A model generated the notes under the pieces. The model was not told the DNA's origin and did no database searches. It saw only the letters and a program-made list of their open reading frames with translations. Position numbers and translations under genes: made by a program. This document shows, piece by piece, positions 3,220 through 30,120 of a stretch of 64,000 nt of DNA. Source of the DNA: Allacma fusca (Eukaryota; Arthropoda; Collembola; Symphypleona; Sminthuridae); NCBI GenBank assembly GCA_947179485.1, contig OX359247.1, positions 5,981,060 through 6,045,059 of the forward strand. The letters run 5' to 3'. How positions within the stretch are numbered: position 1 is the first letter of the stretch; each line of letters opens with the position of its first letter.

Positions 3220-3873
3220 TCATTTCTTTACGTAGACAGTACATTGTTTGTCTGGGAAAACACATGATCGATATCTGTGCGAATCCTTCTGTGTTGCGCT
3301 TGTGTCAATAAAAACATAACCGTGTGGTTTTGAAGTTGAATCCGTGTAAGCGGTTTCTAAAGCTTCATCTCGTTTTCCAAAATTGATCTGTCTTCCCAAA
3401 ATGTTAATAAATGTCGAATCTTTGACAAATTTAAAGCATATTATGTATTTAGCATTTCTTGTTAGCACTGTGGCACCTTTCTGGTAGAAATTCTGGAGAA
3501 TTAGAATAACAAACATATTACGATGATGACTCTCACGGCAAAAGAGATTCTCGACCTTTTTGCCTGTTGTTGCCTCAGTCATTAAATCGTCAATTATCAC
3601 AAGCACTGGATATGTGTTACCCTCTTCCACATCATACTCTAGTCCGCGAACAAATTCGATGGAATTTTCTGCATAATTTTGCATTACTCCAAATAATACC
3701 GGTTGGTATTCAGAATAGCAATAAATTATCCTATCCACGTTTGGATGAAATATTTCATTTCGTCTTTTAATTATCTCAGATACGAGGACTGATTTCCCAG
3801 ATTGGGAAGGCCCGGCAATAATTAAATTTCCAGGCACATTTAATGTATAGTCAAAATCATCACCACTCGCCAT
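3220..3873 (-). CDS. FtsK/HerA-type DNA-packaging ATPase of a Maverick/adintovirus-like element
   Basis: The 217-aa ORF is intact from its ATG at 3873. Walker A is GPSQSGKS (residues 21-28) and Walker B is VLVIIDDL (about residues 90-97). A later conserved Gln-bearing strand (ILILQNFYQ) is typical of virus packaging ATPases of the PRD1-adenovirus/Polinton lineage. These enzymes pump genomic DNA into preformed capsids, so its presence marks the block as virus-derived, not a simple transposon. A TATATAG box lies about 20-25 bp upstream of the start on the minus strand. The gene is downstream of PolB on the same strand and tail-to-tail with the plus-strand gene ending at 3199. No disabling change is visible. 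Confidence 0.88.
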   Translation of the reverse strand: MASGDDFDYTLNVPGNLIIAGPSQSGKSVLVSEIIKRRNEIFHPNVDRIIYCYSEYQPVLFGVMQNYAENSIEFVRGLEYDVEEGNTYPVLVIIDDLMTEATTGKKVENLFCRESHHRNMFVILILQNFYQKGATVLTRNAKYIICFKFVKDSTFINILGRQINFGKRDEALETAYTDSTSKPHGYVFIDTSATQKDSHRYRSCVFPDKQCTVYVKK

Positions 3874-4099
3874 ATCTTTGATTTTTTTAACTATATAATG
3901 ATAACGGTTGATTTACAATAAATTGCTTTCAACTTAAAATATTTGAATTTTTTCTCTTTATTCATTCAACATTTCCAACAGCAACACCATTAATTACAAC
4001 AACGACGACAACATTTTTTATGAACGATCTTATAATATGACTTCCATTACATGACTGAATTATTATAATAGATTAAACCAGTTTAAATCTAGACTTAGG
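3874..4099. other. spacer between ATPase and PolB
   Basis: AT-rich spacer. It holds the ATPase 5' region and, on the minus strand, an AATAAA (TTTATT near 3956 on plus) that could end PolB transcripts. No gene seen. Confidence 0.4.
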
Positions 4100-7000
4100 T
4101 TATTCAAAGATATGTATGTCCTTATGACCGAATGCTACGCTATTGTACTTACTAAGCCAAAACTTCTTTGAGTCAAAGCTGTTCAACGCTTTCTTATTTA
4201 ATTTTATAGTGTACAATTCATGTTTAAAACTACGAATTGATGTCATGGGTACGTCCCAAACCACACCCTCTTCCAACGACTTGACAAACATTTCATATGT
4301 TATTCTATTCTTACGCGCTACCTTAACTATACCCTTTGCTCTTATATAAGAAACGTTTTCACGTTCCAAATCATCGGTTTTAAGTAAACAATATAATTTA
4401 GGAGCCAGAAACACACCTTTGCATAATACACTGTTTGGCATCTCATCCTTCATCAAGCCTAAAATGCCTTTTTGATCAACATTATACAACATGTCTTTTC
4501 GCTTATCCTTACAATTCATGTATACACTGAAATCAAACCTCTTCTCATTATTGTCATAATACAGCCTTTTCAAATCATCGTACAAATCATCAGTAATAAT
4601 TAAATATACAAATGAATCTGTATCCATCATGCATATTTGCGACTTATGCCCAGGATAGTACTTCTTTGTGAAGTCATAATGAAACTGATACATATGCGCT
4701 TTCGATATTTCAAGTACAGCACTTCCCGAAGCAATCATCGAATCTAACATTACAGACAATTTTTTCATATAAAAGATTACTAAGTCACCATTAAAGACAA
4801 TTTCTAAACTATCTAGTGTGGGTTTATTTGCCCACTTTCTGCATTCGGATGCACACCTGGCAAAGCGACTATTTTGATGTTTTCTTTTGTCCATGCACAT
4901 CCTTCCGTAACACACATTTGGGTATATCTTCATTAATTTATTCTTATATGCAGATGTTGCCAAAGCGCGTTCTCTTGCACAAAATTCTACATAGGGTTTC
5001 ATCCATTTCTTTTGTAAAAATGAAAGAATTCTGTGCACTTTTGATATTTCTATCCCTATTTAATGTATACTTGCAGAGTTCTAAAATGAACGACATATTT
5101 TTTCTTCGGTTTTAATGAACATATTAGTTTCTCGCCCTTTATTTGATTTAATGTAATTCCCTGTCTACGAACCTGCTCTTGGGAACATGGTGATAAATCA
5201 TTAAAATCAGTAAACTCCTTTTCGGGACCTGGGGGAAAATCACTTAAATAATCGTGTAGCTCTGGAGGAATGTTATAATCGACTTCAAAAAAATAACCTC
5301 TGGGATCGTCATCACTGATTGACATAATCCAATCAATTATCTCCGACTTTGTCTTGTCTAGCCAATCAGCTTGACGTACCCATTCATATCCCCCATATGG
5401 TAAACTTTGAGACATTGCATATCCATATAAATTGGTCATGTCCCAATACTGAAGGTAGCTATGTGGCTTATCTGGGCAATATTGATTACCCATATAAGGA
5501 TTGTTAACCTCAGCATGTTTTAGGCATGTCTGTGTTATTCCACCTCTAATTGACTTTTCCAAAAATAGATACATCTCAGCGTCTTGGATCAAATCAAATT
5601 CTGTCTTACTCATAATAATGCTGGCATCTTTACTCAATCCTGGCAGGCTTACATAATGTGCTGGATCTACTGAGAAAGATTCAATTGTTGTTTTTCTAAA
5701 CTGTTCGAAAACGTCACATAACAATGCAACGTCGGATAATACGTACAAATCATGAAACTCGCCTATTGTTCTTATATTGAATTTACTCCAGACTGTTTGC
5801 GCATGTTCATATTCCTCCTCACTAATTGTCTCTTCCGTTAATGAAGAATAAAAATACTGTCTGGGAGGGAGCTGCACTTCATCGAATTTACTAAAATCAC
5901 TCATGTATTCATAAGGATAATATTGTTTCTTGTACAATAATTCAATGTCTTCCGCAGTAAAATCATTAAAAAGATGTTGAACAGTGCTAAATATTTCTGT
6001 CCCATCTTTTCGGGCGGTATCCACAATGTTTTGGAGAGATTCGGGTAGAAATTTTAAAGAGTCTACAAATCTTATGATATTTCCCTTATCAGTTTTCATA
6101 GAAATGCTCATGTGCTTTTCATGTGTCAAGGGTATTGAATTAACAGATTTAATTTTTTCATTGTCTGGTTTAATTCCTTTTAAAATAAATTGAGAGTCGT
6201 ATGATAAATTGTGAAAGAATACTGGAATAAAAATACGTACTCTTGCATTTAAATTACATACTTTGTGAGCAAAGCCTATAACTTCATTCGTGATGTGATC
6301 GTGGTGAATAACTTTTGTTTCATAGTATTGAAATTCTTTTGCACAAAGACAACATTTTAAAGTAGTATCTCGAAGTACCTTTTGCTCTTCGGTCAAGTTT
6401 GGAACATTTTTATGCATTCGCTGGCATTCCCTTAATTCCTGGAAATACGGCTCTGTTTTTTCTATAATACTCTCAATAAATCTTTCGTGTGCATCCTCAC
6501 CACGATAACATTCCGAATGCATGGTTTGCCCAGAGTGGTGCTTAATTATGTAAGCATAACCACACGGAAGATGTTCAGATACTTTAACTGTATTCTGCTG
6601 ATGTTCGAGTATACAGTCAACGTCTGAACAGGATTGCAGTAATGGACACTCATCCCTTTGTACTGGTTTTAAAATAGACTCAAAGTCTGCATAAATTACA
6701 AACCATTGGATCAATGTCCGATTAAAATCCATGAAATTATACTTCCTTTTAGTCGGAAATCGCGTAATTTGCGGTTTGTAAGTTATGCAGATTTCTCTAT
6801 GTCTGCCTAAAGTTTCCATGCTTAAAAATCTTTGAAGGCATGAATAACAATAATACTTTTGTCCTCGCCCATTTTCATTAATTAATGTTGAAAGGCCGCT
6901 TGTGGGGTTCTCGTCTGATTGTTTTAGTAGTACATAATGACTGCGCTCTTCATGAGTCACTAAAAGCAAATCAATATGCTTTTCAGCATCTACATTTGAA

Positions 7001-8090
7001 CTAACATATAATGGATACACATTGCCTCTTTTTCTATGATGCCCATATTTGGTTGTATAGTTTTCACCATTTTCCTCGTACCCTATAACATTCACTGACA
7101 ACCTTACATTCTTTTGCTCAAATTTGCGAATATCTTTTATTTGTACGGGATATTTTAAAAAGCTATGATTAATTGTTTTGGCAATGTCTAGATAAGATTT
7201 TGCTTTAGTTGCCTTTTTCCTAGAACGCTCACTTCCTCTGTATAGGGGCTTTAATTCGGCTAAAATTGAATAAAGAAAGCATTTCTGATCATTTATATTC
7301 TCTACATTAACCACACAGTTCTTCGATTTTAATCCCGGTGGAATTTCAAAGAATGTACTTTCACCGCCACTTAATGGGTTAAAAGGGACCGTGTTGAACG
7401 AAAATTCCTTAATTTTAACCACACTCCAATTACTACCTCTAGTGATTAGCATTGTCAAATCATCGGACATTTTTTTTGCCATTAATTTGATTGTAGGGGT
7501 AATCATACTTTTATCCAAAATCTTATGACACATTGAATTCAGAAAAAATATTTCTTGGATATTTTCTTCAAATGTTCTTTTTTCCATTAAAATCTTTGCA
7601 TGAGAAAAAAATGAGCTTGCATGTTTTTCTCGTAATATTCCTTCCATTGTCTCTCTTAAAATGTTATTGATAGTATGGAAAAGTCCATCAATTGACATAA
7701 ATTCTCGATCTCCTAAGAACAGGACATATTCCTTACACGTATTAAAAGCATTGGCTTTTAATGAGAACCGTAATCCTAAATTGTTATCATTATTTCTTAC
7801 GTTACCTCCTATTTGTAAACTATCTGATTCATTACCATAATATAGTGATCGATGGATTTGATATTTGTGGACATCTAAGTCAGCTCTAGTCCTAAATCTA
7901 ATGGCGCATACTGTACAGAAGCGGTCCCGGTATTCTTTAATTTGATGCTGGAGTTCCTCTTCAGATGCAGCTTGTGATTTTCGTTCTTGTTCGTTGTGTA
8001 ATAGATGTGGCTGTTGGTTGTATTGCTCAAGGAGAGAGATGCTGTTGGGTGTTTCTATGTGACCCAAGACATCTGTACCCTTTTCTTTTT
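4100..8090 (-). CDS. polB: family-B DNA polymerase, protein-primed Maverick/adintovirus type, one frameshift
   Basis: Replicative polymerase with 3'-5' exonuclease. In the frame counted from 8067, the parts run in this order. A C2H2-like finger starts with CTVC (residues 51-54). A second Cys/His finger follows (YYCYSCLQRF). Exo I is YADFES (about 460), a Cys/His module CCLC..HHDH comes next, Exo II is HNLSYDSQF (about 620) and Exo III lies around LSDVALLCD (about 775). Pol motif A is DMTNLYG (about 875). After a single-base frameshift near 5056-5070 the second frame (5038-4100) carries a divergent Pol B motif (PNVCYGR) and Pol motif C MDTDS. Together the frames give about 1315 aa, full length for the family. 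The first frame has no ATG at its 5' end: it opens at a splice acceptor (CAG at 8093-8091), so an upstream exon is needed (see findings). The frameshift could be decay, a sequencing error in an A/T run, or recoding. Confidence 0.9.
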
Positions 8091-8213
8091 CTGAAGAAGA
8101 AAAACCGAAAATTAATCGCTAAACCGGCATAGTCTTGATCATATTGTTTATGCATGTCATGTAATGATGCATTCGTTTATGCATTACAAGGTAAAACAAT
8201 ATATTACCCGTGT

Positions 8214-9750
8214 TTACGGTTCCTCCTCCTCCTCTTCCAAGTCCTCCGCCTCCTCCTCTGATGATGAAATTAACATCGGATTCTTCACCATCCTTCTCAT
8301 TTTCGCTATAGCCATACGAAATTCTTCTACACTGGTGTCGTCGGCGGATTCTAATGCATCCGTCGTGGACTCCGGGCTCCCTTCCTTCATGTCGGAACCG
8401 GCTGATTCCGTGTCCGAGTCCATATGATGATTTGAATCGTTTGGTTCTCTCGGGAGTTCCGCTGTCATCACCATCGCTTGAGTCAAGGTCTCGTCGTCGG
8501 AAATGGTTATTAGAATCGGCTGTTGCTGACCTAGAAGAGCTCTTTCGCGTTGTTGATGATGACTGTTCAATACCAGCTGACTTGGTCCGCTCACGGCTAT
8601 TTCCCCAGAAACTACATCCTGGCTGTTCATCATCTTCAGTATTTCTTGATTGTTGCATGATTTGGCCAGTGGACGATTTTCTAAAAAAGTCGCATACTTT
8701 GGCTTAGCTGAAAAAAAAAACGGAATTCATAACTCAATGGGATACAAATTATTAGCATTGTAATTATAGCAGGTTGCATTCAATGTGTAAATTCCTACCA
8801 CTTGGCTGAGTCATCCAATTTCCCACCGTATTTGGAGGTGCATTGAAATCATAGACATGTCCTGAATCATCCGTCATCTGATCATCGATGCTAAATGTAT
8901 TAGCCCTGACGGTATCCCCTTTCACATTTCCTACATTGGTAAATAATAATTACGTATTGCATAATCAGGTAGCATTAAAATCTGATTTATGCACGCATTT
9001 GTCATAAGAAATTATAATGTACGAGGCGAATTAAATACCTTGCTCTGAGTCCCCTAGATTATCATGTGTAACATGATCGGGATTTTGATTACCGTCTGGA
9101 ATGCTGTGGGACACTGGTATTGCGTCACCTTCTGAAAACAGTGACATTATTTATAAAATCAATCTATCAATGCAATTACAGTGCGTCGTTGTTACAAACA
9201 TATCTAGGCTAATATCTCTCGAGCTTTATATCTTCATATGTATCTATAACTACGTGCCTCACTACCTTCATACAATACATCATGCTTCATATTAATAAAA
9301 GTTAGCATTGACCATACTTCCGCTAAAATTATTCAATTATTCATTTTGTGAAAATTCATACCTTCCACATTTTGCAAGATTGAAGATTCATGTAATCCAG
9401 GTTTGTCCCCAGCCTTCGAGTCTGAACCCGGTAACTCGTCTTCCATTTCGTTGCCTTGCACATCCGGCACACTCGCAATTTCTCCATTGTTACTTCTACC
9501 ATTTAGCTCGGATTCTGCAAAAAAAGAGAGTACAAAACATATATTATGTATGTAGGCTCCTAAACTTAAACATAACTCGTGAACTAGAAAGAGTAAATTA
9601 ATCAGCACCGTAAAGAACACTTCAAATATATTCATTAAAAATACCTATGAATGGCTCTCGCTCAAATAATTCTGCCCAATCAATATGGAATTGGTCGTTA
9701 TGATTCTCCAAGTTATCATATTCCCTACCGCAAGTAATACACAAATTCAT
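8214..9750 (-). CDS. five-exon acidic zinc-finger-like protein, about 325 aa
   Basis: Minus-strand exons are 9750-9645, 9514-9362, 9131-9039, 8930-8799 and 8707-8214. All four introns have GT..AG ends and every junction is phase 1, so the frame is kept throughout (978 nt including the stop). Exon 1 starts at an ATG and holds a small Cys/His cluster (CITC, then two His). The last exon is rich in Ser/Asp/Glu and ends in a run of Glu (SSSEEEAEDLEEEEEEP). An acidic tail of this kind suits a DNA-mimic or transcription-associated protein, but function is unknown. The gene lies directly upstream of PolB on the same strand, and its exons are phase-compatible with the PolB acceptor at 8091-8093, so the two may be alternative products of one transcription unit. 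Confidence 0.75.
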
Positions 9751-13540: not shown

Positions 13541-14420
13541 TAACACGGGATTTTAGGTATAGGCGGTGTACCTGGGCAGCACCGTACCTGGGCATATGAG
13601 CCTACTCCCCTACTGTGGTCTAATGAGCATGCCCCTTCAGTTCAAAATACAGCTTAAAGCACCTGTATATAGTGGTCAACCAGTCAGAACGAAGGGATAC
13701 AACTCGCGCAAACCCGAACCAATGACACAGCTGTTTGAGTTTAGTGCAATTAAAGGCATTTTGGGGCGTTTTTATCTCCAGCCGTTTAATATTGCATGTA
13801 TTTGTACTAAATCAAACGATGGTTTGTTGGCTATATTATTAGTCCTTTGAAGTATTTCAATTAATTAGTGGTTACTTTTAATCATTTTAAAAAATTATTA
13901 TTAGCTTTAACCCTATGGTTCCTGTGCTGTGGCCAGATCGGCCACGAAATGATTTTTTTTAACGAAATAATTTTTTTAAGGGTGTAAATTTAGTGCATTT
14001 AGTTTAGAAAAATTAGTAATCGTTACTTATTATATTGACCATTTGGGGGAAAAAATTCAGGTCAGTGACATTACAGTGAAGGCTGAAAAAAAATCGAAAG
14101 TGGACAAGAATCAGAGATATCCGCCATTTTCAATGTAATTTAATGCTGCAATAGCCGTAAATAGGGGCCATACACACATTTTTTGCTTACTTTAAATTTG
14201 TGGAATAAAATTCTTTCAATGCAAGTTGTACTTGAAATTGAATTTGGAACTCGATTTCGGCCCTAAAGTTATTTGACCAATTGTTCCAACCGATTTCAAC
14301 CAAATACGAATTCAGACTACCTGCTGACATAAGCAATGTTGAAAAAAAAATTCGACGGAATTGGTCCACTAAGTTTTGAGTTATGGTGGGTCGGGTAGGT
14401 TGATTTGAAAATGCCCGGCA

Positions 14421-14790
14421 TTTTGGGCATTTGCATTTCAGGGCGATTTCATTTAGGGCATTTTGGGCATTTGCATTTCAGGGCGATTTCATTTAGGGCA
14501 TTTTGGGCATTTGCATTTCAGGGCGATTTCATTTAGGGCATTTTGGGCATTTGCATTTCAGGGCGATTTCATTTAGGGCATTTTGGGCATTTGCATTTCA
14601 GGGCGATTTCATTTAGGGCATTTTGGGCATTTGCATTTCAGGGCGATTTCATTTAGGGCATTTTGGGCATTTGCATTTCAGGGCGATTTCATTTAGGGCA
14701 TTTTGGGCATTTTCATTTCAGGGCGATTTCATTTAGGGCATTTTGGCCATTTTCATTTCAGGGCGATTTCATTTAGGGCAGTTTGGGCAA
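14421..14790. repeat. 40-bp tandem repeat, about nine copies
   Basis: Exact period of 40 (TTTTGGGCATTTGCATTTCA, then GGGCGATTTCATTTAGGGCA). The first copies are identical and the last two or three vary, as expected for a recently expanded array. Related GGCATTTT strings recur in both orientations near 16210-16350. Confidence 0.9.
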
Positions 14791-16379
14791 GGGCACATTT
14801 GGGCATTTTCATTCGAGGACAATTAGGCATTTTGGGCAGAATAGTGAAATAAAATAGTACAATTGGTACAATGTGGAATTCGATTTGAAAATGTCGTTGC
14901 AAGTTGGACGGAAAAGCGTCCGAAAATGCCTGCCAGGTATTTTTATTGTTGTGAATTTGGCGCATGTAACGACGTAAAATGAAATCCCTCCATCACGTAT
15001 ATATGCATGTATACCCCTATACATGTATTTGTATTGATGATGGGCGAAACATGTTTTCTGTTCAAATTAGAACCCGTACAGTAATTTTTTGTTTACACAG
15101 ATAAACTAAACAAACAATATTTGAGGACCTGTAAGGAGGATGTACCTTGGTAGTTACTTGAGCCAGTTTTCCAATAATTTGGCCTGAATATATTTTTATT
15201 CTGCACGTCAATCATGCTATGATTTAAATTGATTTTCAAAGGAGAGACATTGTATGTATGTATGTATTTGATGGGACCCAAGTCTATCCATTGTGGATTT
15301 CCTTAGGAGGCGCTCAAGCCTTAAGGCTTATTGCACTCGCCCAGTTACTTGCATTGCTTAATATACGGACTTGCATTTCGCATGGTCACACATATATTGT
15401 GTGGCATGCATTGATTTGCATAATGTCCGAGTTACCTTATCTTACCGCTCCTCTTGCAGGTCGGAGCTGCCCTTGCATAATCTATGCAAAGATTTTAGGT
15501 TTGCTGTCGATCTGATGGTGTCGTATATATACGTCCCATTGTCAGTCACCAGCATTCCTAATTCTTGAGATTACCAAACTATATGAGCTCCAACGTAAGG
15601 TCTTTACCCCCGGTCCAATGTTCCAAGAACGGCAGAGGCAGAGTCATGCAGATCTGCACGAGCTTACATACCAGCCCTATCCAGAGTCAGGAAAGGAAGG
15701 CAACTACTTTGCATAGGTATGCCGCAACCTGCATGTACGTTTTACGTTTGCGGTACACGCTCAACGCACATACAGCCACAGCACACTACACAAATGGTAT
15801 GTAGTTAGTGCAAACCTTACCTGTGCAGTTCCCGACTCCGGATTTAGCCCTTGGATTCCGGGTCAGTGAGGATCCTCCGGCACAGGTACGGGCACTCAAC
15901 TCGGCAGTCCGCAGTCACTGTCCATAGAGGACCAGAGGGCTTTGGGACTAACGAATGTTATGCGTCCCTCGAACTGTAGGTTGGAGAGATAAGAGAGCCA
16001 CTGACAGCCACTACCTCTCTCTCCGGCTCCTACGAGCGAATTGAGAGACATATTACATTACCCCATGTCATTTAAATTGAATTGATTTGTCAATGTTTCT
16101 GGAATTAAAATTAACGAACAAGCGAATAACAGACATTCACTTGTGCCTTTTCCTTCGCTGTGCTCCTACACATTCGGGTATTTTTAATCTAAACTAGTTA
16201 TCCAATTCTGGTGCCGTGAAAATGCCCAACTTGCCCTGCTCAAAATGCCCACAATCAGGGCATTTTCAAAAACCGCCCGCATGCCCAATTTTGGGCATGT
16301 TGGCAGGCATTTTGGGGAATTTTCAGCTGGGCGGGCAAATACTGTCGGCATTTTCAATCGACATACCCTAATGGTGGGA

Positions 16380-17068: not shown

Positions 17069-19902
17069 AACGGGTGATACAGTATAATAAAAACTTGAGT
17101 TGGATGTGGTCAGTGGTCACCCTGAGCATAATTTATGTACATTAATGAAAACGCGGCACATTTTTATATGAAGTTGTATTGACTGGAGACGTGTAATCGG
17201 CTTACGAATTACGTTTTGGTCCGAAAGAAGTTTTTAGTGGATAAGAAATATTCTTGGAGAATACTGCAGCTAGATAAAATAATAACCGTTGTCGTAGATG
17301 ATGTCGTAGAAAAATAGTCCTGGTTCGAAAATGCATGCAGAAATAACTCTGTAAAGAGGTAGGTTTTAAAACTCATACCATTAATGGAAATAAAAATTTT
17401 GCGTATTTTTGTGGGTTAGATATGTCATTACACAACCATATCTGCCGTAATTTAAATGTAAATCCTATTCATACCTAAAATATAACAATTATAATAAGTA
17501 GAAGACATGCGTTTTTATACTTTCTAAACATTTACATTTCTTGCCACAACAACACTTCCTTAATTTAGAAATGTGTGCAATAGGTGTCAATTTATCAGCA
17601 TATTATTTTTCCATTTGATATTTGCTTAACTGAATTTCTGAAAAATGAATGAATTTTGTTACCTCAGACAAACTGCATGTTGCACACTAAATGGTCATTT
17701 CGCGACAATTCCGGCTGGCGACACTGTTTATTTGACATTTTAGTTGCGATTTAATAACGATAACGTAAAGTAACGGTTATATTATATTTGTTAATGGTCA
17801 TGGAAACTAATGCTCGCGTATTAGCATTGTTTTGAAGTAACGGAACGGTAACGCTGAATTTTTAATGCAATATTTAGTAATGTAATGATAATTAACGTCA
17901 ATTATAATAATAATTAAATAACTTAACGTAACGAAAATGTGGATGCACATTACTGAGTCCCGATTGAAAGAAGAATGAATGGGACAAACTGAGGGAAACT
18001 AGTGAACCGCAGCTCAGTATGCATTGAGAAGCTACTCGCTGATATGCAACTTATTGTTGCTATGGAAAGATATATTGTGTTGCCTTTATTATTTACTATA
18101 TTTACTTGGTATATATAAAGATTCCTATATACGGATTGGTAAATTGTACTGCTGAATGTAGGAAGTAAGAATTGAAGAGATGGGAGTTGTTATATTAATC
18201 GTTTTCTATTAATTTGATTTACTAAGACACTTGAACTTTCATTCTCAAGGGCAGCAAAGACCACCCGTGCAAGAGTCGTTGAAATTGAGAGAAAAGGGCG
18301 ACATATTTGTCAACGTGCGCTGAAGCAAGCACTGATCCTTCTTAAAATATCTTCTAAAGATTAGTTGGACTCGGTCCATTATCATTGAAATCAATCTGCG
18401 GATGTAACATTAATAGTTACTCGTTGTCTGAGACAATCGCTCATTGGTTTACAATGTCAATAATTTAGCAATAGTTTTAGTTGCATATAATGGTTGAGAA
18501 CTGGAACTCTTGTCTTCACACGGTGTGATTGACGTGTCAATATCTAATTAAGCAGAAGTTTTAGTTGCTTATAAATGTGGAAGCTGTTGTTTTCTGATCA
18601 GGGATTTTTTTTAGTGAAAATTCTTTTCGCTTTAAATATTAAGTTGTGTAAATTATTTAATTCCCGCTGATTGACTTGCATCCTAACATTATTGGAATTA
18701 AAAACCATCGTGTGGTCTTATTAGAACATCGGGTACTGTAAGTAAAAACACGCAGTTTAAAATCCCTCACGTGTATATACTGTCTTGATTTTAGCACTAT
18801 ACGAATGAACAAATATATATTACTGTTTTCTATCATTGTCGAAAGGAAAATAATCAAGTAATTTAAATATAATAAGTAAAAAACATAGACATGTAGTTTT
18901 AGCCTAGTGAGATTTTGAGTTAGCTGGTTGAAACAGTTTTTAATGTGGAAAAAGATTTGCTAAATCACGGGGAATCGGATATTTATTTTCCTTTTACGAT
19001 CTATGTAGTATATAGGCCGGGGACGGCAAATCCTTTCTTGACACCCTGAAAATATAATGGGTATTTTTACAGCGGATAAAATTTGTCGGAGAATCCGTTA
19101 CAGTGAGATTCACATTGGTGGACACGACATATGGTATGGCAACTTTTGTCATTTATGTCCGATTACTTCAGTAATAATTATTAAGCTTGAAAGCTATAAT
19201 AATTGAGCTTGATATGCTCATGTAAATTTAAATGGAAAGACCCATTAAGGATAAAACATTCCATACTACGAAACATTATTAATTACGAATTTTTCATATA
19301 GTAAGGAACTAATGGCAATGTAATTGACTCTAGCTAGAACGGTAAACCATTAGTTTTTTTGTCGGTTATTGCAAAGCGGCGAAGATGGTTTGTGACCGTT
19401 GATGTATTGATTTAGCTTTGCAGTATCACCCGAATTTTTTCCGTTTGTATGATTCCAGTTGGAAAGTTTGAAATGTTTCCCAAAAAAAGGCGAGAAATAC
19501 ATTTCAGAATTTTTAAACGATTTTTCAGATTGTTTGGAACATGTTTGATAACCTTATATGATTTAACGTAGTACATACTGTTTGGCATCGTTCTTTGTTA
19601 TAACAGTTATCCTTAACTATGCAATAATTCGTTTTATGGTCTCGCAGGATGGAATGAATATTAGTGTTTCGTTTGTCTCTGAAATGTCTTTCTTCTCTTT
19701 CCAAATCATCTTTGCAAATAAGCAATTTCATGTATCTAAAACTAATGCACCGATGTCAGCCAAAATTGAACACGTCCTAGTTTTTTAGTTGAAGAATAAC
19801 TTTGCAAAGTTTGAGCATAATAGCTGCAGTAGTTTTTCCATAAGGCTCCCCTTCGACGTTCATTATTGGTAATCCAAACGTTTATGCATACCATGTACGT
19901 AT
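17069..19902. other. AT-rich intergenic, no gene seen
   Basis: Only short chance ORFs. Blocks at about 18420-18600 (TTTTAGTTGCATATAA and CTTGTCTTC strings) resemble blocks at about 36790-36990 upstream of the second receptor gene, so this may be relic duplicated flank. Confidence 0.5.
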
Positions 19903-20229
19903 TGTCATGATCCAGCTACGCTTTATCATTGCCGCTCGTCATCACAGAGTGAAGACGGTTTGGTGTCACGGCTACGCGCCGCGGTTATTGACGATTGTTG
20001 CTTATTGAAGATAATTATTATTATTGAAAATATAAATTGACTGAAAAAGTCAATATTACTAATATTTATTTTATAAAATGCCAGAATGGCAATTGTAATG
20101 CTATAAGCATTGAGTTAATGTAAAATGTACTGCGGAGCCTGTGGACTCTGACTGATCCTGTCATTCTAGGTTAAGTTTTCTTCGAATAAAGACGTACCTC
20201 TCTTATTATAATTTCCTCTTATCACGACA
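19903..20229 (+). repeat. LTR 1 (5')
   Basis: 327 bp, TGTCATGATCC to ATCACGACA, TG..CA ends, with AATAAA near its 3' end (TCGAATAAAGACG). It differs from LTR 3 by about one base in the parts compared. Confidence 0.92.
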
Positions 20230-20428
20230 GGTGCGGGGTACTACTAATAATTTTCTTCAAACTTGTAACTCCCCCTCTTCCCCATAATTTCCTTTGAACT
20301 TCGAACTGTCCCTCCCTTCCATAATTCCTTTAAAACATTTAACTTTCCCTCCCATAATTCCTATTTAATCTAACTTCCCCCTTCTTATAAATTCTTTTTA
20401 ACTTAATATTGATAAATCAGTATAAACT

Positions 20429-22822
20429 ATGTCCCAATTATTTTATTCCGAATTAATTTCCAAACTCCCAAAGTTCGACGGCAAATCCTCAGCTAAATCA
20501 TGGCTATTCTGTTTAAATGAAGATTGTATGCTTTTAAAAATTGATACCCACTGGATTCTCAGAAATATGCACCGTTTACTCGAAAGCCAAGCTGCCAATT
20601 GGTGGAAATTTACTAATCAAAGTATAGTTAGTGATTTGGAAGCCGACAATGCCAATGATAAATTTGTCATTTTTAAGCATTTGCTATTCCTACAATTCCC
20701 AGAACCCGATTCCAGAAAGATTGCAATTGAATTAAATCAAAATCGAAAATTCCTAATCGGCAAAGAGTCCCCAATGGATTATGTATTAGATAAGTTAGGA
20801 TTATTTTATGATATTGACCCCCAAATGAATGATAAAGTAAAGATTGAACATTTAGTTGAAGGCCTGCCTGTTCAACTAGGATTTACCCTACGATCACAAT
20901 TAAACCCAGACAGTACTGTTGCCCAGTTTGGAAAATACTTCCTTTATCATTGTGAAAATCCCCATTTCCAATTATTTCTTTCCCAACCCTTCAATCCTGT
21001 CCCAACTGAATTTATACCTCATTCAGAATTATACAAGCCCGTTCCTTCCCAGCCCAATGCAAATTTAGATCCTTTCCCCCTGGTTATACCTCAGATTTCT
21101 CAAAACCCATCATCCCATTCATCCAACCGTCCCAGTTGCCAAATATGTGGAAAATTCGGACACATTGCGGCTACGTGCTATGAATTTCTTAATTTGCAAC
21201 GTTCTGCACAACGTCATAATAATTTCCAAGATTATTCCACTAATCATCGTCAAAATGGAAACTGGACCCACAATGGACATTCTAAACCCACATTCAAGAC
21301 TTCGATTAATCAAATCCCAGCTTTGATTTCCAATAATATGGAAACCATTAATGATCAACCCCATTTTAATCAAAATTCCCAATACCAATACCCAACAATT
21401 GATAATTCAGTAAAACTGAATAGTCTGACCACACTAACAAATCAGAGTGTAACTTCAACCACATCGTGTAACAATTCATCCCCATCTACTGATATTCCAA
21501 AAGTTAGCAAAATTCCACAATCTCACCCAATTCATTTTATTCCCCCTGCTCCCCAAATACCACGTATGCAAACCTTTCCATTTCTCCCAGTCCTTCCAAA
21601 AGAGAATTCATCTGACTCTAAACTGCTGTATTTATCGACTAATATTGCTTTCTTTGATTGTGAAGCTCTCATTGATAGCGGAGCAGCTGTATCGGTAATA
21701 AGTGAACATTTCTTTACTAAGTTACCGAAAACCACTCAAGGAATTGTTACCCCCTTAGTTAAACCGGTGTCCCTGTCCCTCGCTGTCCAAGATTCCTGTA
21801 ATTTACTAATTACTCATGAAGTTAAACTCCCTGTGAAAATAAATGGTTTATTCACCGAATGGAAATTCTGGATAGTTCCTAAAGCATCATTTGATGTAAT
21901 AATTGGATTAAATTTTCTGAGAACTTACAAAGCTGTATTATATTTTGGCTCTGATTTACTTTCTTTCCCCGAGTTGACCACCATTCTGTCCCCATGTCCA
22001 AATCCTAAACCAACTCTTACTTCAATTGCTGTTCAAACGGAGTTTGAAAATAGTATTACTTCTGAATCTACCCCTATTGCAACAATCTACGAGAAAGCAA
22101 TTTATCCCATTGAAGCTCCCACAAATTGTACCAACCATGCCCCGTTTATTCCCTTGAATAGCTCTATTCCTCCTGGATTTGAAAATTTTAAACCTGATTT
22201 TTCAAATATTTCCTTTTATACTGATACCCCTTTCAAACACCCTGTTGATTTTGGTACCCCGGAAGGTCAAGATGTTTCCCCAGATATTAATATTTTCTCC
22301 CTCAACCCAGAAATGTCTTGTGATGAATTATTCCCCAGCATCGATTTTACTCCAGACGACAATGTAGCCCATAACTCCCAACGAGAACTGGAAAATCTTA
22401 ACTTTGACCCCCTACCTTCGCCTCGATTGTATCTTCCTGATGAAAAAGTTCTTGTTGCAGACCATTCCAGAAAAACTGGATGTGTTAATAAATTTTTACC
22501 TTGCCCCTTTAAAATTGTCTCCGAAATTAATGATATCACTTTTTTGTGTAAAGATCTACGCGATAACCCAAAGTTTCCTGATTCCCCAAAGTTGAATCCC
22601 GACCCTCTTTGTTTACTACATTGTGAAGTTCCAGATTGCGGTCAGATGCTGAGGAGGAGTCCCCCACCCACCCCAGGTGGGTCATGTCATGATCCAGCTA
22701 CGCTTTATCATTGCCGCTCGTCATCACAGAGTGAAGACGGTTTGGTGTCACGGCTACGCGCCGCGCTTATTGACGATTGTTGCTTATTGAAGATAATTAT
22801 TATTATTGAAAATATAAATTGA
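20429..22822 (+). CDS. Gag-protease ORF fused in frame to integrase tail
   Basis: 797 codons from ATG 20429. The N-terminal part is Gag (matrix/capsid-like), with a CCHC zinc knuckle CQICGKFGHIAATC at residues 237-250. The aspartic protease has DSGA at about 416 and a later IIGLNFL strand. The C-terminal part (from about residue 660) has the look of an integrase C-terminal domain (LPDEKVLVADHSRKTG..FLPCPFKI). Nothing between encodes reverse transcriptase, RNase H or the DDE integrase core, so several kilobases were lost without breaking the frame. The ORF then runs about 46 codons into LTR 2. The encoded Gag could still package RNA if enzymes come from a full-length relative. Confidence 0.85.
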   Translation: MSQLFYSELISKLPKFDGKSSAKSWLFCLNEDCMLLKIDTHWILRNMHRLLESQAANWWKFTNQSIVSDLEADNANDKFVIFKHLLFLQFPEPDSRKIAIELNQNRKFLIGKESPMDYVLDKLGLFYDIDPQMNDKVKIEHLVEGLPVQLGFTLRSQLNPDSTVAQFGKYFLYHCENPHFQLFLSQPFNPVPTEFIPHSELYKPVPSQPNANLDPFPLVIPQISQNPSSHSSNRPSCQICGKFGHIAATCYEFLNLQRSAQRHNNFQDYSTNHRQNGNWTHNGHSKPTFKTSINQIPALISNNMETINDQPHFNQNSQYQYPTIDNSVKLNSLTTLTNQSVTSTTSCNNSSPSTDIPKVSKIPQSHPIHFIPPAPQIPRMQTFPFLPVLPKENSSDSKLLYLSTNIAFFDCEALIDSGAAVSVISEHFFTKLPKTTQGIVTPLVKPVSLSLAVQDSCNLLITHEVKLPVKINGLFTEWKFWIVPKASFDVIIGLNFLRTYKAVLYFGSDLLSFPELTTILSPCPNPKPTLTSIAVQTEFENSITSESTPIATIYEKAIYPIEAPTNCTNHAPFIPLNSSIPPGFENFKPDFSNISFYTDTPFKHPVDFGTPEGQDVSPDINIFSLNPEMSCDELFPSIDFTPDDNVAHNSQRELENLNFDPLPSPRLYLPDEKVLVADHSRKTGCVNKFLPCPFKIVSEINDITFLCKDLRDNPKFPDSPKLNPDPLCLLHCEVPDCGQMLRRSPPPTPGGSCHDPATLYHCRSSSQSEDGLVSRLRAALIDDCCLLKIIIIIENIN

Positions 22823-23011
22823 CTGAAAAAGTCAATATTACTAATATTTATTTTATAAAATGCCAGAATGGCAATTGTAATGCTATAAGCATTGAGTTAA
22901 TGTAAAATGTACTGCGGAGCCTGTGGACTCTGACTGATCCTGTCATTCTAGGTTAAGTTTTCTTCGAATAAAGACGTACCTCTCTTATTATAATTTCCTC
23001 TTATCTCGACA
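22685..23011 (+). repeat. LTR 2 (middle)
   Basis: 327 bp. Differs from LTR 1 at a C for G (GCGCTTATTG) and at TCTCGACA for TCACGACA. It is followed by the same primer-site sequence as LTR 1, so it serves as 3' LTR for the first unit and 5' LTR for the second. Confidence 0.92.
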
Positions 23012-23444
23012 GGTGCGGGGTAAGATTATCTCGTTTAAAACTACCCTCCCGTTTCCCTGAATTTGGTATTATTTACCGTTAATTTCCCTACTTCTTCGTG
23101 AGCTACATTCCCAAAAATTCCCATTTCTCCCGAATAAATTACCCCCCCCACATTTTCCGATTTGCATCGACCTTCGCGGACTGTTCGAGGCCACTCCATG
23201 TCCCTGGGCTACGAAAGAAGCTACCGATTCCCTCTGGCGCTAATAGGATAAGGACCAAGTCTGTTACCCCATCCCCGGCTGCTCCCGTCGTCATTTCATC
23301 CCCACAGGCTCCCCGCTAGGCTAAGGAAGCGACCAGATGTGTTGAATGCCGCCCTTCGATCGAGCCGAAAACCTGCGAACCCGTCGGAAGATCCGTTGGA
23401 GGAAGATGCTGAGGAGGAGTCCCCCACCCACCCCAGGTGGGTCA
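23012..23444 (+). mobile_element. 433-bp second internal region (TRIM-like)
   Basis: Starts GGTGCGGGGTAAG and ends with the shared polypurine-like tract. It carries short Pro/Ser-rich frames (for example 23098-23319) of no known domain. The last frame (23346 on) continues into LTR 3 and encodes the same tail peptide as the first unit. This is a deleted derivative sharing an LTR. Confidence 0.75.
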
Positions 23445-23771
23445 TGTCATGATCCAGCTACGCTTTATCATTGCCGCTCGTCATCACAGAGTGAAGACGG
23501 TTTGGTGTCACGGCTACGCGCCGCGGTTATTGACGATTGTTGCTTATTGAAGATAATTATTATTATTGAAAATATAAATTGACTGAAAAAGTCAATATTA
23601 CTAATATTTATTTTATAAAATGCCAGAATGGCAATTGTAATGCTATAAGCATTGAGTTAATGTAAAATGTACTGCGGAGCCTGTGGACTCTGACTGATCC
23701 TGTCATTCTAGGTTAAGTTTTCTTCGAATAAAGACGTACCTCTCTTATTATAATTTCCTCATATCACGACA
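23445..23771 (+). repeat. LTR 3 (3')
   Basis: 327 bp, ends ATATCACGACA, followed at once by the GTAT duplication. Confidence 0.92.
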
Positions 23772-26410: not shown

Positions 26411-28200
26411 GCTAAATGAAAGGATAATGTATATATTACCATAATGTCTCATAATACTAAACATATTTGTATTCGAAAGCTTTTTCCAATGACCGATGTT
26501 ATAATAAAGCAGTCAAAATCCAAATGGATGGAATCACAAATAATTGGTTTGTGATTGTTCGTGATAATGTCTCACTACTTTGGTTTAGTGAAAACTTTAC
26601 TGGCTTATTCGAATTGGGTAAATTCCAAGAAAGGGATTTATACCCGATAATTTATGCATAATTGACACGTGCATAGATAAATGGTCTCCTGTACATTATA
26701 CATGTACTACTACTCTCAATAAAAAGCTATGACAGTCCTTGAACCGAAACAAAACTTGTTCCACCTTGGTTAACAACGGCAGTTACTGGTACAAGTTATT
26801 GACACTCTTAACAACACGTGTGCAATTATTTCAGCCCTTAAATACACTGTGGTCTCAAACATATGCTCCAGTTATTATAGATTTTGAAGTATTATAGATT
26901 GCAAATGTTTTATTTCTAGGTACTTCATCACCCCGGTACTTTAATATCTTATCTGTGACTTTGTGCAGAGCGCAATTTAGAAATGTTCACTATTTCTAGT
27001 CTTTCATGCGGACTTCCGCAGTCATCCAAATTCTTATTTTGTTAATTCTGCTAGAAAATCCAGCGATCTCACAAGTGTTTACACATTCTTTTAACAAATC
27101 ATGGTTCATTTCTTCTTCTTTGGGGAAAAAATTATTATAGTGTATCTTGTAGGTATGTATTTATATTTACTTTGTTTCCCATTACTTCACACTTCTGTAT
27201 TAGATATTCCTGTCTAATGTAAATTCGTACACTTACTACCATCACTCCTACATTACCCATAAAAATGTGGTCTCAAGTGAGTGATGAAAGTGTAAGCAGT
27301 TTAAATTACATTTAAATATTCCCATATTTCTTCAACCATTGTTGTTTGAAAGTCTTCAAACACATACAAGAAGAATACGGGTTTGTTTTTTGGTGAAGTA
27401 CTTTGAAGCCCTTATGAAATTTGTGACAATATTACCTTTTAATGAATATTATTTAAAACCTTTTCTCTCCACGTGTAATTCCACGCTACAACCTTCTAGA
27501 CTCATGAAATGGTAGCAATATGTACATATTGCGTGAGTTAGTGACTTTACAATTTTATGATCAAATATCCATGAAACAGGCCAAATATAATCCGATTGTC
27601 AGCTTGCTTACTTTAAAAATTACTATTTTGGATTTGCGAGATGACTGCCTGAGTTTTGTTTTATCAAGAGTGAAATCAGTTGTTATATAACCTATATGTT
27701 TACACTGCGCAACTATCCCCGTATTTAAATTGTCAGCTTGATTATTTGACTGGAAATGACTTAACAGTAATTGAGCAGTAATTTTACTGTATATGCATAG
27801 ACATTGTGATATGTGTCCTTTTCAGTTCAGAAACGTAATTTATTAAAATTAGTAAAAAGAGTAAATTTTTGCGAATATTTGTTTTGCTTAAGCTAATTTT
27901 TGTTCTCATCTTTTCGTTGGATCTGAAATTGTTACGTTGGACCTTTTCCGTTTGTTCGGAAATTAATTAATCGTTAAGTAATAATATCAGTATATATGGC
28001 ACCAGCATAAGCATCATGGGCTAGAGCTATTGATTGGCCTGTGAGTTTGTGATTAGTATAGTATTATGAACACTATTGGAAATACCACAATTTTATTTGA
28101 CCTCCAAATAAATTGCAGTAGAAGTAATTAAATTATTTATGTCATGTTAGTTAATTCTGTTGTTTACAAATCCACGTTTTAGCTCCTACTTCCAATCAAA
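26411..28200. other. intergenic, 5' flank of the first receptor gene
   Basis: No gene seen. From about 27535 (TTTTATGATCAAATATCCATGAAA) to the ATG, scattered blocks match the flank of the second receptor gene (37110-37680), so this is duplicated upstream sequence and may hold shared promoter elements. Confidence 0.55.
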
Positions 28201-30120
28201 ATGCTTATAAGGTCGTGCAAGGTTTTAGTGCTTTGTTATGTTATGTTTATTAAAAAAGTTTCAAGCAATCAACATTTCATCAATTCCCTCTCAGCTTTGG
28301 ATAAAAATTTAGTTTCTCCTAAAATTCTCCGTGTATTAAACCAGACAAGGAACCAACTTTCTATTGTTGTCCTAGCTAACACACCCTTAGCCTCATCGGA
28401 ATTATTGGACTTGTCGTCCTTCCACTCCTCTTCGATCTTAACCTCGATTTATAAAACGAATTTCACTGTGTTGACAGATGCTAATGTAGATTCAGTACTT
28501 GAAAAGGAACAAACACGCAACATTGTCCAGTCAACTGTATCAGCCCGACGGTTTACCAGTTCACTAGAAACAATAATAATTCCAGTACAGAATGCTGAAT
28601 TCCCACACAATTTTGGAAACAAAGGTTACTTTCCGAATGGGAACAAAAATGTGTTCATTTTTGTAGGACTCGAAGAAACTGTTAACGGAATACTAACTTG
28701 GAGGTCTGTGAAGAAACTGCGGTGGAAGTTTGGAATCGTATACAGAGATCGCGGCAAGAATTTAGTGACATCTGGAAGGGAATTGATTTTCTTAAATTCG
28801 GATCTGTTGCCTTCGTTCGGTGCTGACAAGCTGAGTTTAAGTGGACTACATTTCTACACAACTGCGCTTCGCGTGGACGCATACGTGGCATGGGATTCCA
28901 ACAAGACTCCTTTTATGGGAGCATTCTTCAATGCAGTCAAAGCTTTCTCAGAGCTAAGTAATTTTACGTTCTCGGTAAACCTGCCCCCTGGTGGAATGAA
29001 TAAGTTGTCTAATGGGTCCTGGACGGGGGCAGTCGGTGATGTCCTCTACAACAACAAAGACATGCTCTTAGGTTTTGGACAATCCTATCATCGGGATCAT
29101 CTTTTAGATTACTCCACCTTATTTGGGTTTATTGAAGTCACGTTTTACAAAGCGCATGCGAAAGTCGGAACGACAGATGGAGCTTTACTAAAACCATACC
29201 AGCCATTCGTTTGGTTTTTGATAGGAGTGACATTTGGATTGCTGGTTGTGGTTTTTTATTTTGAAACTAGACGAATGTCGGTTGAGGCGTCATTTTCATT
29301 TTGGGTTCTCTACCGATCCCATTTGGAACAATCAGTATCATTGGGAGATAATAGCAGCAATAACCTCAGCGTGTTACTTACATTAACCCTATTCTATTGT
29401 ATGATTATTGGCACGGGCTTTAAAAGTAACTTAGTTTCCTACTTAACAATCCCTGATCAGGAAGAAACTCCAAGTACTTTCGAAGATCTGGCTCTGAGAG
29501 AAGACTATCAACCGTATTTCATGACAATGAAAGGAGCTGGAATACATTACTTGAAAGCGTCGAATGCATCTTCGGTAGTGGCTATAAGAAAAAGGATGAT
29601 TGTTACAACGGACAAGGAGAAGTGTCTTGTTAAAGTCATAAGTGAACCGAAAACAGTGTGTATTTCTTGGTGGCATGTTTCAATGAGTGTAATTGCTCGA
29701 AATTTGACTCTTCACAGAAGTCGTTCAGTGTTTGAAAAATCTCGGGAACCTGTTTTTTTTATTCCAACTACAATGGCGGTTTCAAAGGGGTTCAAATTTT
29801 ACAAGGAGTTCAATAGTGTTGTCAGAAGTTTAAGGGATGCTGGATTCTTCGCTAAATGGTTACAGATGTTGTATGACTTTGAAACTGTAAGAGGTCTCGA
29901 GTATCTTGACAAGAAGTCAGGAGAAATGTTTCGGTTGCTTTCTTCGGCTTCCAAGATTGAGGGACTAGTTAAACCGCTCAAGTTTAGAAATGTAGCTATT
30001 GCATTTTGTCTTATTGTGGCTGGGTTATTTACATCTCTTCTTCTATTTGCTTATGAAAAGATGAATTCCCGAAGGCTGCAAACTTGTTGGTCAAAGAAAC
30101 TACATACAAATGAATACTAG
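28201..30120 (+). CDS. divergent ionotropic receptor (iGluR family), copy 1
   Basis: Single-exon ORF of 639 aa from ATG 28201. It starts with a hydrophobic signal-like segment (residues 5-18). The split ligand-binding domain follows: S1 around NLPPGGMNKLSNGSWTGAVG with Arg in HRDHLLDYS. TM1 is at about 335-355. Then come the pore loop and the M3 helix with GTGFKSNLVSYLT (about 395-415, matching the iGluR SYTANL position), then S2, and TM at about 598-620. Several Asn-glycosylation sites lie in the extracellular part. Arthropod IRs of this kind are chemosensory ion channels in dendrite membranes, paired with co-receptors. It is intact and about nine-tenths identical by eye to the copy at 37681; the last 20 or so residues differ. 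Confidence 0.85.
   Translation: MLIRSCKVLVLCYVMFIKKVSSNQHFINSLSALDKNLVSPKILRVLNQTRNQLSIVVLANTPLASSELLDLSSFHSSSILTSIYKTNFTVLTDANVDSVLEKEQTRNIVQSTVSARRFTSSLETIIIPVQNAEFPHNFGNKGYFPNGNKNVFIFVGLEETVNGILTWRSVKKLRWKFGIVYRDRGKNLVTSGRELIFLNSDLLPSFGADKLSLSGLHFYTTALRVDAYVAWDSNKTPFMGAFFNAVKAFSELSNFTFSVNLPPGGMNKLSNGSWTGAVGDVLYNNKDMLLGFGQSYHRDHLLDYSTLFGFIEVTFYKAHAKVGTTDGALLKPYQPFVWFLIGVTFGLLVVVFYFETRRMSVEASFSFWVLYRSHLEQSVSLGDNSSNNLSVLLTLTLFYCMIIGTGFKSNLVSYLTIPDQEETPSTFEDLALREDYQPYFMTMKGAGIHYLKASNASSVVAIRKRMIVTTDKEKCLVKVISEPKTVCISWWHVSMSVIARNLTLHRSRSVFEKSREPVFFIPTTMAVSKGFKFYKEFNSVVRSLRDAGFFAKWLQMLYDFETVRGLEYLDKKSGEMFRLLSSASKIEGLVKPLKFRNVAIAFCLIVAGLFTSLLLFAYEKMNSRRLQTCWSKKLHTNEY

What the first reader, a model, noticed from the sequence alone, without database searches (positions are those of the whole stretch)
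8067..9750. PolB appears to borrow its first exons from the acidic zinc-finger gene by alternative splicing
The PolB frame has no ATG for hundreds of codons and opens at a pyrimidine-rich acceptor (TTCTTCTTCAG, ending 8091). The upstream gene has donors at 9645, 9362, 9039 and 8799, all phase 1, and the PolB acceptor needs phase 1. One transcription unit could thus yield an acidic protein or a polymerase with a shared N-terminus. Adenoviruses also make polymerase and terminal protein from shared leader exons, so this would be a parallel or inherited arrangement.
Basis: partly seen in the sequence, partly recalled or inferred. Interest (0 to 1): 0.86.

Follow-up and report, generated by a model that had tools for sequence, protein, structure and literature searches.

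The report
Frameshift-and-splice polymerase of springtail Polinton
In virus-like Polinton elements of a springtail genome, one exon carries two proteins in overlapping reading frames, and the DNA polymerase appears to be made by slipping one base back at a retrovirus-type slip site and then splicing into the polymerase exon.

Summary
Partly right. The four donors (9645, 9362, 9039, 8799) and the PolB acceptor (exon from 8090) exist, all phase 1, and the PolB exon has no ATG for about 130 codons, so PolB needs upstream exons. A gene model from the host, Allacma fusca, uses that junction. In representatives of six divergent families of this genome P has no stops, where A-preserving codon shuffles expect 4-8. 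In five families P opens at TTTTTTA, read xxT TTT TTA in A: the HIV-type -1 slip heptamer. My reading: one spliced mRNA yields acidic protein A or, after a -1 frameshift, an A-P-PolB fusion. No RNA or protein data were available.

The parts
9645..9750 (-). Exon 1: start ATG and C2H2-like finger CITC..H..H of protein A; donor ATAG|GTATTT, phase 1
   Evidence: exon 1 found in F1-F5 and, weaker, in F6
9362..9514 (-). Exon 2 (153 nt, phase 1 to 1)
9039..9131 (-). Exon 3 (93 nt, phase 1 to 1)
8799..8930 (-). Exon 4 (132 nt, phase 1 to 1; motif NTxGNW)
8208..8707 (-). Exon 5, dual-coding: frame A (acidic, stop 8216-8214) and frame P (-1 of A, continues in phase into PolB)
   Evidence: both frames open in representatives of six families; codon-permutation tests
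8682..8688 (-). TTTTTTA, read ACT TTT TTA GAA in frame A: candidate -1 ribosomal frameshift heptamer
   Evidence: only canonical heptamer in register in exon 5 of F1, F2 and F5, first of two in F3 and F4; none in F6
8605..8628 (-). EQPGCSFW motif of frame P, conserved in F1-F5 (ERPGCSFW in F2)
8656..8658 (-). ATG in frame P at which gene model P0091 starts; no ATG in exon-5 frame P in the F2, F5 and F6 representatives
8214..8216 (-). Stop of frame A; in F3, F4 and F5 this stop is the last codon of the exon (TAG|GT)
8091..8207 (-). Intron 5 (117 nt), donor ACACGG|GTAATA, acceptor TTCTTCTTCAG; phase 1 on both sides for frame P
   Evidence: junction used by NCBI gene model P0091
5056..8090 (-). 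PolB exon: acidic/Gln linker, second C2H2 finger (7923-7852), TP-like domain, vOTU-like region, exonuclease and palm motifs; frame breaks at 5056-5059
4100..5059 (-). C-terminal part of PolB in another frame in this copy (frame broken here, open in near-identical copies)
3220..3912 (-). FtsK/A32-like packaging ATPase of the same element
   Evidence: Pfam matches below cut-off

Best explanation
The element is a Polinton/Maverick in Allacma fusca. One transcript, spliced through exons 1-5 and on to the PolB exon (intron 8207-8091 removed), is translated from the exon-1 ATG. Most ribosomes read frame A to the stop at the end of exon 5 and make an acidic zinc-finger protein of about 325 aa. A fraction slip one base back at T TTT TTA (8688-8682) into frame P, read the glycine-rich P segment, pass the exon 5-PolB junction and make a zinc finger-acidic linker-P-zinc finger-TP-vOTU-polymerase fusion. 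Shown: both frames of exon 5 are open and P is conserved, the junction phases fit in six families, and the heptamer is in register in five. Inferred: that the mRNA is spliced this way in vivo, that frame P is entered by ribosomal slippage, and the product ratio.
For: (1) Frame P has 0 stops in six of six family representatives; permuting synonymous A codons gives means of 8.1, 6.9, 4.7, 5.4, 5.7 and 3.9 stops (F1-F6), with zero stops in at most 0.32% of shuffles. Of 37 loci with the heptamer, 32 have both frames open to the end of exon 5. (2) P similarity between families exceeds every A-preserving shuffle in 10 of 10 pairs of F1-F5 (z 5.7-11.5); P has 20 invariant columns, A 11. (3) In exon 5 neither frame has a free third position; in the PolB exon the third position changes most in 8 of 8 pairs. 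(4) P-PolB junctions are phase 1/phase 1 in all six families although intron length modulo 3 differs; Allacma gene model P0091 uses this junction. (5) TTTTTTA is present in 37 of the 41 F1-F5 loci and in register with P in 36. Contexts in F1-F5: ACT, GTT, AAT, GAT, AAT TTT TTA. F3, F4 and F5 have a P-frame stop directly before it. U_UUU_UUA is the HIV shift site (PMC5009743, passages). (6) Between the exon-5 start and EQPGCSFW, no YAG enters P from a phase-1 donor in F1, F2, F3 or F5; only AAG or GAG do, while the 20 junction acceptors that I listed (of 30) are all YAG. (7) No ATG in exon-5 frame P in the F2, F5 and F6 representatives.
Against: No stable RNA structure after the heptamer in F1, F2, F4 or F5 (z -0.4 to +1.7; one spacer, three lengths); only F3 has one (z -3.4, -2.5, -1.6 for 50, 75, 110 nt). 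Divergent family F6 keeps the dual frames and the phase-1 junction but has no canonical heptamer in register, and has CAG|CAG acceptors that would enter P. F4 also has a CAG that would enter P 19 nt past the heptamer start. The T6A run is partly forced if Phe-Leu in A and Phe-Phe in P are needed: given x-F-L and PolB codon usage its chance is 0.17 per family and 8e-4 for four further families, treated as independent. Frame A in exon 5 is supported less than P: permuting P codons leaves only 0.3-1.5 stops in A, and A similarity beat all P-preserving shuffles in 5 of 10 pairs. The similarity z-scores do not correct for shared ancestry. F1, F3 and F4 have an ATG in exon-5 frame P. No transcript or protein evidence was available; P0091 is a prediction whose RNA support I could not check. 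All families come from one genome.
Confidence: 0.58

Rival explanations
1. Frame P is entered by an alternative 3' splice site inside exon 5. A-type mRNAs use the first acceptor (exon start 8707); PolB-type mRNAs use a downstream AG shifted by 2 mod 3, so exons 1-4 read straight into P and PolB with no frameshift.
For: A phase-compatible open AG exists in every family representative. F6 has CAG|CAG at +17/+20 and no heptamer; F4 has a CAG 19 nt past the heptamer start. F3 and F5 have CTAAT before T6, which could be a branch point with T6 as pyrimidine tract (inference from the sequence).
Against: In F1, F2, F3 and F5 the only such sites before EQPGCSFW are AAG or GAG, at different positions, whereas the 20 junction acceptors listed are all YAG. 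In F1, F3, F4 and F5 the AG of the conserved TTTTTTAG would itself give frame A. Five families share the T6A position and register but no common P-entering AG.
Confidence: 0.22
2. One reading: PolB mRNAs skip exon 5, joining exon 4 (8799) or an earlier donor directly to 8090; exon 5 belongs only to the acidic protein.
For: All four donors are phase 1 and the PolB acceptor accepts phase 1; the PolB exon lacks an early ATG in F1, F3, F4 and F5.
Against: It leaves unexplained why exon-5 frame P is stop-free and ends in phase at a donor leading to PolB in six families, is conserved among F1-F5, and is included in gene model P0091.
Confidence: 0.1
3. P-PolB or PolB starts at its own ATG (8658 in F1, or near the PolB exon start) from an internal promoter; A is a separate overlapping gene.
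For: Model P0091 starts at the F1 ATG; F2 and F6 have an ATG just after the PolB acceptor; P0001 starts with a Met 14 residues before the first Cys of its finger.
Against: No ATG in exon-5 frame P in the F2, F5 and F6 representatives; no ATG before the finger in the PolB exon of F1, F3, F4 and F5; in F3-F5 the open P frame begins at the heptamer, right after a stop.
Confidence: 0.07
4. The overlap is a compositional accident: a purine-rich acidic exon leaves the -1 frame open and glycine-rich.
For: GAG/GAA-rich stretches read as Gly/Arg in another frame; the tails of F1 and F2 (EEEEEP over GGGGG) and much of F6 are of this kind.
Against: Codon permutation that keeps frame A gives 4-8 stops; motifs outside GAG runs (EQPGCSFW, KRIR/KRFK, GxGHG) are conserved in F1-F5; in-phase junctions in 6 of 6 families.
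Confidence: 0.03

Closest known systems
Retroviral/LTR-element gag-pol -1 ribosomal frameshifting (HIV site U_UUU_UUA)
   Same: Same heptamer in the same register; upstream product made alone or as a polymerase fusion in the -1 frame; F3 has the heptamer followed by a hairpin. [quoted passage not shown]
   Different: The shifted frame runs about 150 codons over the same exon and reaches a DNA polymerase only after splicing of a further intron; four of five families lack an obvious stimulatory structure; one further family lacks the heptamer; the element is a dsDNA Polinton.
Polinton/Maverick protein-primed PolB (pPolB with terminal-protein and vOTU domains)
   Same: PolB order fits: TP-like beta domain, vOTU-like region (Cys280 and His394 invariant in 36 sequences; their catalytic role is my inference), exonuclease, palm (PMC11071308, passages).
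   Different: The polymerase frame continues upstream of a second zinc finger across an intron into a dual-coded exon. 'Frameshift' and 'splic' do not occur in the held text of PMC11071308.
Adenovirus E2B (pre-terminal protein and polymerase from shared leader exons)
   Different: There the sharing is by splicing (recalled); here the two products share a whole exon in two frames. Common origin not tested.
Dual-coding exons such as INK4a/ARF (recalled)
   Same: One exon read in two frames.
   Different: INK4a/ARF uses alternative first exons (recalled); here the frames appear to diverge inside the exon at a slip site.

Membership tests
Polinton/Maverick | Family B polymerase of the DNA_pol_B_2 (protein-primed) type | tested here: met
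   90 homologues, best 40% over 95%. The window ORF itself has no Pfam match up to E 0.1, but its closest relative P0001 matches DNA_pol_B_2, E 1.4e-7. Protein priming itself was not tested.
Polinton/Maverick | Retroviral-like (RVE) integrase | tested here: met
   PF00665 E 2.4e-11 in L049:8251-9222, just left of the window.
Polinton/Maverick | Packaging ATPase, adenain-type protease, double jelly-roll capsid protein | tested here: inconclusive
   All three matched only below Pfam cut-offs.
Polinton/Maverick | Terminal inverted repeats | tested here: inconclusive
   None of 40 nt or more in window 1-26000, but the left end of the element lies outside the window.
-1 programmed ribosomal frameshifting cassette | X XXY YYZ heptamer in register at the frame switch | tested here: met
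   F1-F5 yes (37 of 41 loci have T6A, 36 in register with P); F6 (L050) no.
-1 programmed ribosomal frameshifting cassette | Downstream stimulatory RNA structure | tested here: not met
   Significant only in F3 (1 of 5 families); pseudoknots not modelled.
-1 programmed ribosomal frameshifting cassette | Conserved overlapping -1 frame without its own start | tested here: met
   met strictly in F2, F5 and F6, whereas F1, F3 and F4 do contain an ATG in P.
-1 programmed ribosomal frameshifting cassette | Measured frameshift product | not testable with these tools
   Needs a reporter or peptide data.
Alternative-splicing shared-leader system (adenovirus E2B type) | Two mRNAs that share 5' exons | not testable with these tools
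   No RNA reads available; junction phases are compatible.

The most novel reading that the evidence does not exclude
A eukaryotic dsDNA element makes its protein-primed replicative polymerase the way retroviruses make Gag-Pol: a -1 frameshift inside a fully dual-coded exon, followed by splicing, gives a low-abundance finger-linker-P-TP-polymerase fusion alongside an abundant acidic partner that shares its N-terminus. One divergent family (F6) would have replaced the slip site by tandem splice acceptors and kept the same two products.
Probability: 0.48. Interest if true: 0.87.

Novelty: new variant of a known kind. Interest (0 to 1): 0.77.

Why it matters
If true, a Polinton polymerase is expressed by recoding plus splicing, with about 150 codons of two-frame coding kept over families only 52-85% identical to the window family in PolB. 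It would show how a protein-primed element sets the ratio of polymerase/terminal protein to an accessory protein from one promoter, and it means that ORF-by-ORF annotation of Polintons misses the polymerase N-terminus. None of the titles and abstract openings listed for Polinton+frameshift+polymerase (15 of 28 papers), Maverick/Polinton/programmed frameshifting (10 of 140) or Polinton+alternative splicing+polymerase (8 of 12) announces such a case. I did not read those papers in full; in PMC12721341, on a PolB-helicase fusion, the one 'frameshift' passage concerns gene decay.

Tried and rejected
Relatives as DNA outside this genome: two viral-contig scans (PolB ORF, P0001) gave no locus. Protein search with the frame-P alignment gave one hit, P0091; with the frame-A alignment none. 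Alternative acceptors as the general route into P were considered and ranked second. An own ATG for P was rejected for F2, F5 and F6. A conserved stimulatory hairpin was sought and found only in F3. L051 showed no exon 1, exon 5 or PolB 5' exon. A PDB sequence search with the capsid-like ORF of L049 gave nothing at E <= 1. Fold search of the PolB model gave no match at E <= 0.001; the first 14 rows are Y-family polymerases over 118-203 columns, in line with the LF/PAD origin of TPs stated in PMC11071308. Papers: PMC5009743, PMC11071308, PMC12721341, PMC10427803 and PMC7851563 were seen as found passages; in PMC9630974 none of four search terms occurred; all others only as listings.

Rows dropped or chosen: the permutation tests used one chosen copy per family (L010, L017, L018, L020, L030, L050), picked because both frames are intact; the other loci were left out of them. 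One search covers the window and 39 loci (L033 missing, because its motif escaped the pattern); one search covers the 37 loci with T6A, L033 included. The four F3 loci without T6A (L032, L034, L037, L043) each belong to a PolB copy with stops inside, but other broken copies keep T6A. L031 has T6A out of register with P. L016 carries a one-base difference that puts its upstream frame A out of register. Only 45 of 841 first-look PolB candidates were scored; the near-identical F1 pair has only 9 exon-5 differences, none at the third position of P.

Full report
WHAT AND WHERE. The own-genome search placed the window at C10:5981060-6045059 of a 392.7-Mb assembly of 91 contigs and found 49 PolB matches (45 of 841 candidates scored). 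Contig C10 has 66,084,411 bases, exactly the scaffold N50 published for Allacma fusca qeAllFusc8.1 (392.8 Mb, 95 scaffolds; PMC10427803, passages), and a frame-P homologue is an Allacma fusca protein. I conclude that the host is that springtail. The element has a family B polymerase, a packaging ATPase-like gene and, just left of the window, an RVE integrase, an adenovirus-protease-like gene and a weak double-jelly-roll match. I call it a Polinton/Maverick; the capsid, protease and ATPase assignments lie below Pfam cut-offs, and terminal repeats were not seen.

THE OBSERVATION. Donors at 9645, 9362, 9039 and 8799 and the acceptor before 8090 are real sequence features, all phase 1. The PolB exon has no ATG for about 130 codons, not hundreds. 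Upstream of PolB in the same genomic frame lies a second ORF (8703-8119), separated by one stop. Removing a GT-AG intron, 8207-8091, connects the two in phase. That ORF overlaps exon 5 of the acidic gene one base back.

FAMILIES. I read the upstream regions of 43 copies: the window copy, L009-L048, L050 and L051. They fall into six families; PolB of F2-F6 is 52-85% identical to the window family F1: F2 (L017), F3 (L018), F4 (L020), F5 (L030), F6 (L050, one copy). L051 holds no recognisable 5' part. Exon 1 with its finger is found in all six, weakly in F6. In F1 and F3 I read the whole chain of phase-1 exons by eye, in the other families its later junctions.

DUAL CODING. In exon 5 the acidic frame A and frame P (-1) are both open in all six representatives. 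Permuting synonymous codons of A within each sequence gives on average 8.1, 6.9, 4.7, 5.4, 5.7 and 3.9 stops in P for F1-F6; zero stops occur in at most 0.32% of shuffles. The reverse test is weaker: permuting P codons gives 0.3-1.5 stops in A (F1-F5). P proteins resemble each other beyond every A-preserving shuffle in 10 of 10 pairs of F1-F5 (z 5.7-11.5); A proteins exceed all P-preserving shuffles in 5 of 10 pairs. These scores ignore shared ancestry. In the PolB exon the third codon position changes most in 8 of 8 pairs; in exon 5 the three positions differ by at most about 1.8-fold in 7 of 8 pairs, the exception being the near-identical F1 pair with 9 differences. Of 37 loci with the heptamer, 32 keep both frames open to the end of the exon.

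CONNECTION TO POLB. Frame P leaves exon 5 in phase 1 at donors GG|GTAATA, AG|GTGATA, AG|GTAATG, AG|GTAAGA, AG|GTAATA and TG|GTAAAT (F1-F6), and the PolB acceptors need phase 1, although the intron length modulo 3, and so the genomic frame, differs between families. In F3-F5 the stop of A is the last codon before the donor. An NCBI gene model of Allacma fusca, P0091, reads frame P and crosses exactly this junction (VNT-EKEK). It is a prediction starting at an F1-type ATG; I could not check its RNA support.

HOW FRAME P IS ENTERED. Frame P has no ATG in exon 5 in the F2, F5 and F6 representatives. In F1-F5 it opens at or shortly before TTTTTTA, which reads xxT TTT TTA in frame A; in F3, F4 and F5 the codon directly before it is a stop in frame P. 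TTTTTTA is present in 37 of the 41 F1-F5 loci (window, L009-L048) and in register with P in 36; it is missing in four F3 loci, each tied to a PolB copy with internal stops, and out of register in L031. It is the only canonical -1 heptamer in register in exon 5 of F1, F2 and F5, and the first of two in F3 and F4. U_UUU_UUA is the HIV shift site (PMC5009743). The splicing rival needs a P-entering AG: before EQPGCSFW, F1, F2, F3 and F5 offer only AAG or GAG, while the 20 junction acceptors that I listed (of 30) are all TAG or CAG; F4 offers a CAG. F6 is the exception and a warning: no heptamer, but CAG|CAG sites that would enter P. So slippage fits F1-F5 best, splicing fits F6, and one cannot yet say which is ancestral.

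AGAINST. Only F3 has a significant hairpin after the heptamer. The run may be partly forced by the amino acids of two frames; given x-F-L its chance is 0.17 per family. All data come from one genome, and no RNA was seen.

THE POLYMERASE. An AlphaFold2 model of the first 1020 codons (mean pLDDT 77.6) has a beta-rich domain at residues 118-245, then the region with the invariant Cys280 and His394, then exonuclease and palm regions (motifs read by eye). Foldseek's top rows, none with E <= 0.001, are Y-family polymerases. PMC11071308 (passages) describes polinton pPolB as TP, vOTU and the polymerase, and derives PRD1-like TPs from a Y-family little-finger domain. The exon-1 finger, acidic linker and P segment would thus lie N-terminal to the TP.

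VERDICT. Shared N-terminus: supported. Exon skipping as the mechanism: possible but not the best account. Best reading: -1 frameshift in a dual-coded exon plus splicing of intron 5.

Noticed in passing
5056-5059: PolB frame of the window copy is broken; five near-identical copies have 1339-aa open frames. Described only, not mended.
   Followed up: partly
8214-8300 and the frame-A ends of L018, L020, L030: The C-terminus of A ends in hydrophobic-then-acidic tracts (IIVSSDDD, IIVYSSDEDE, VIISSDEE; F1 ISSSEEE), resembling SUMO-interacting motifs (recalled).
   Followed up: no
L050 (C10:17608800-17614800): Divergent Polinton family F6 with a dual-coded exon but no slip heptamer, and a CAGCAG tandem acceptor instead.
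   Followed up: partly
L013: One F1 copy has seven T at the slip site, so frame A runs directly into frame P in the DNA.
   Followed up: no
19862-23703: Three copies of a 300-nt repeat around an ORF with an aspartyl-protease domain (20426-22822): LTR-retrotransposon-like insertion.
   Followed up: no
28183-30120 and 37609-39585: Two long single ORFs with ligand-gated ion channel matches below cut-off, perhaps ionotropic-receptor genes.
   Followed up: no
14337-14896: Tandem array of period 40 nt beside the Polinton.
   Followed up: no
genome-wide: At least five near-identical F1 copies, and many F4 copies alike around the slip site, point to recent Polinton amplification in this springtail.
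   Followed up: partly
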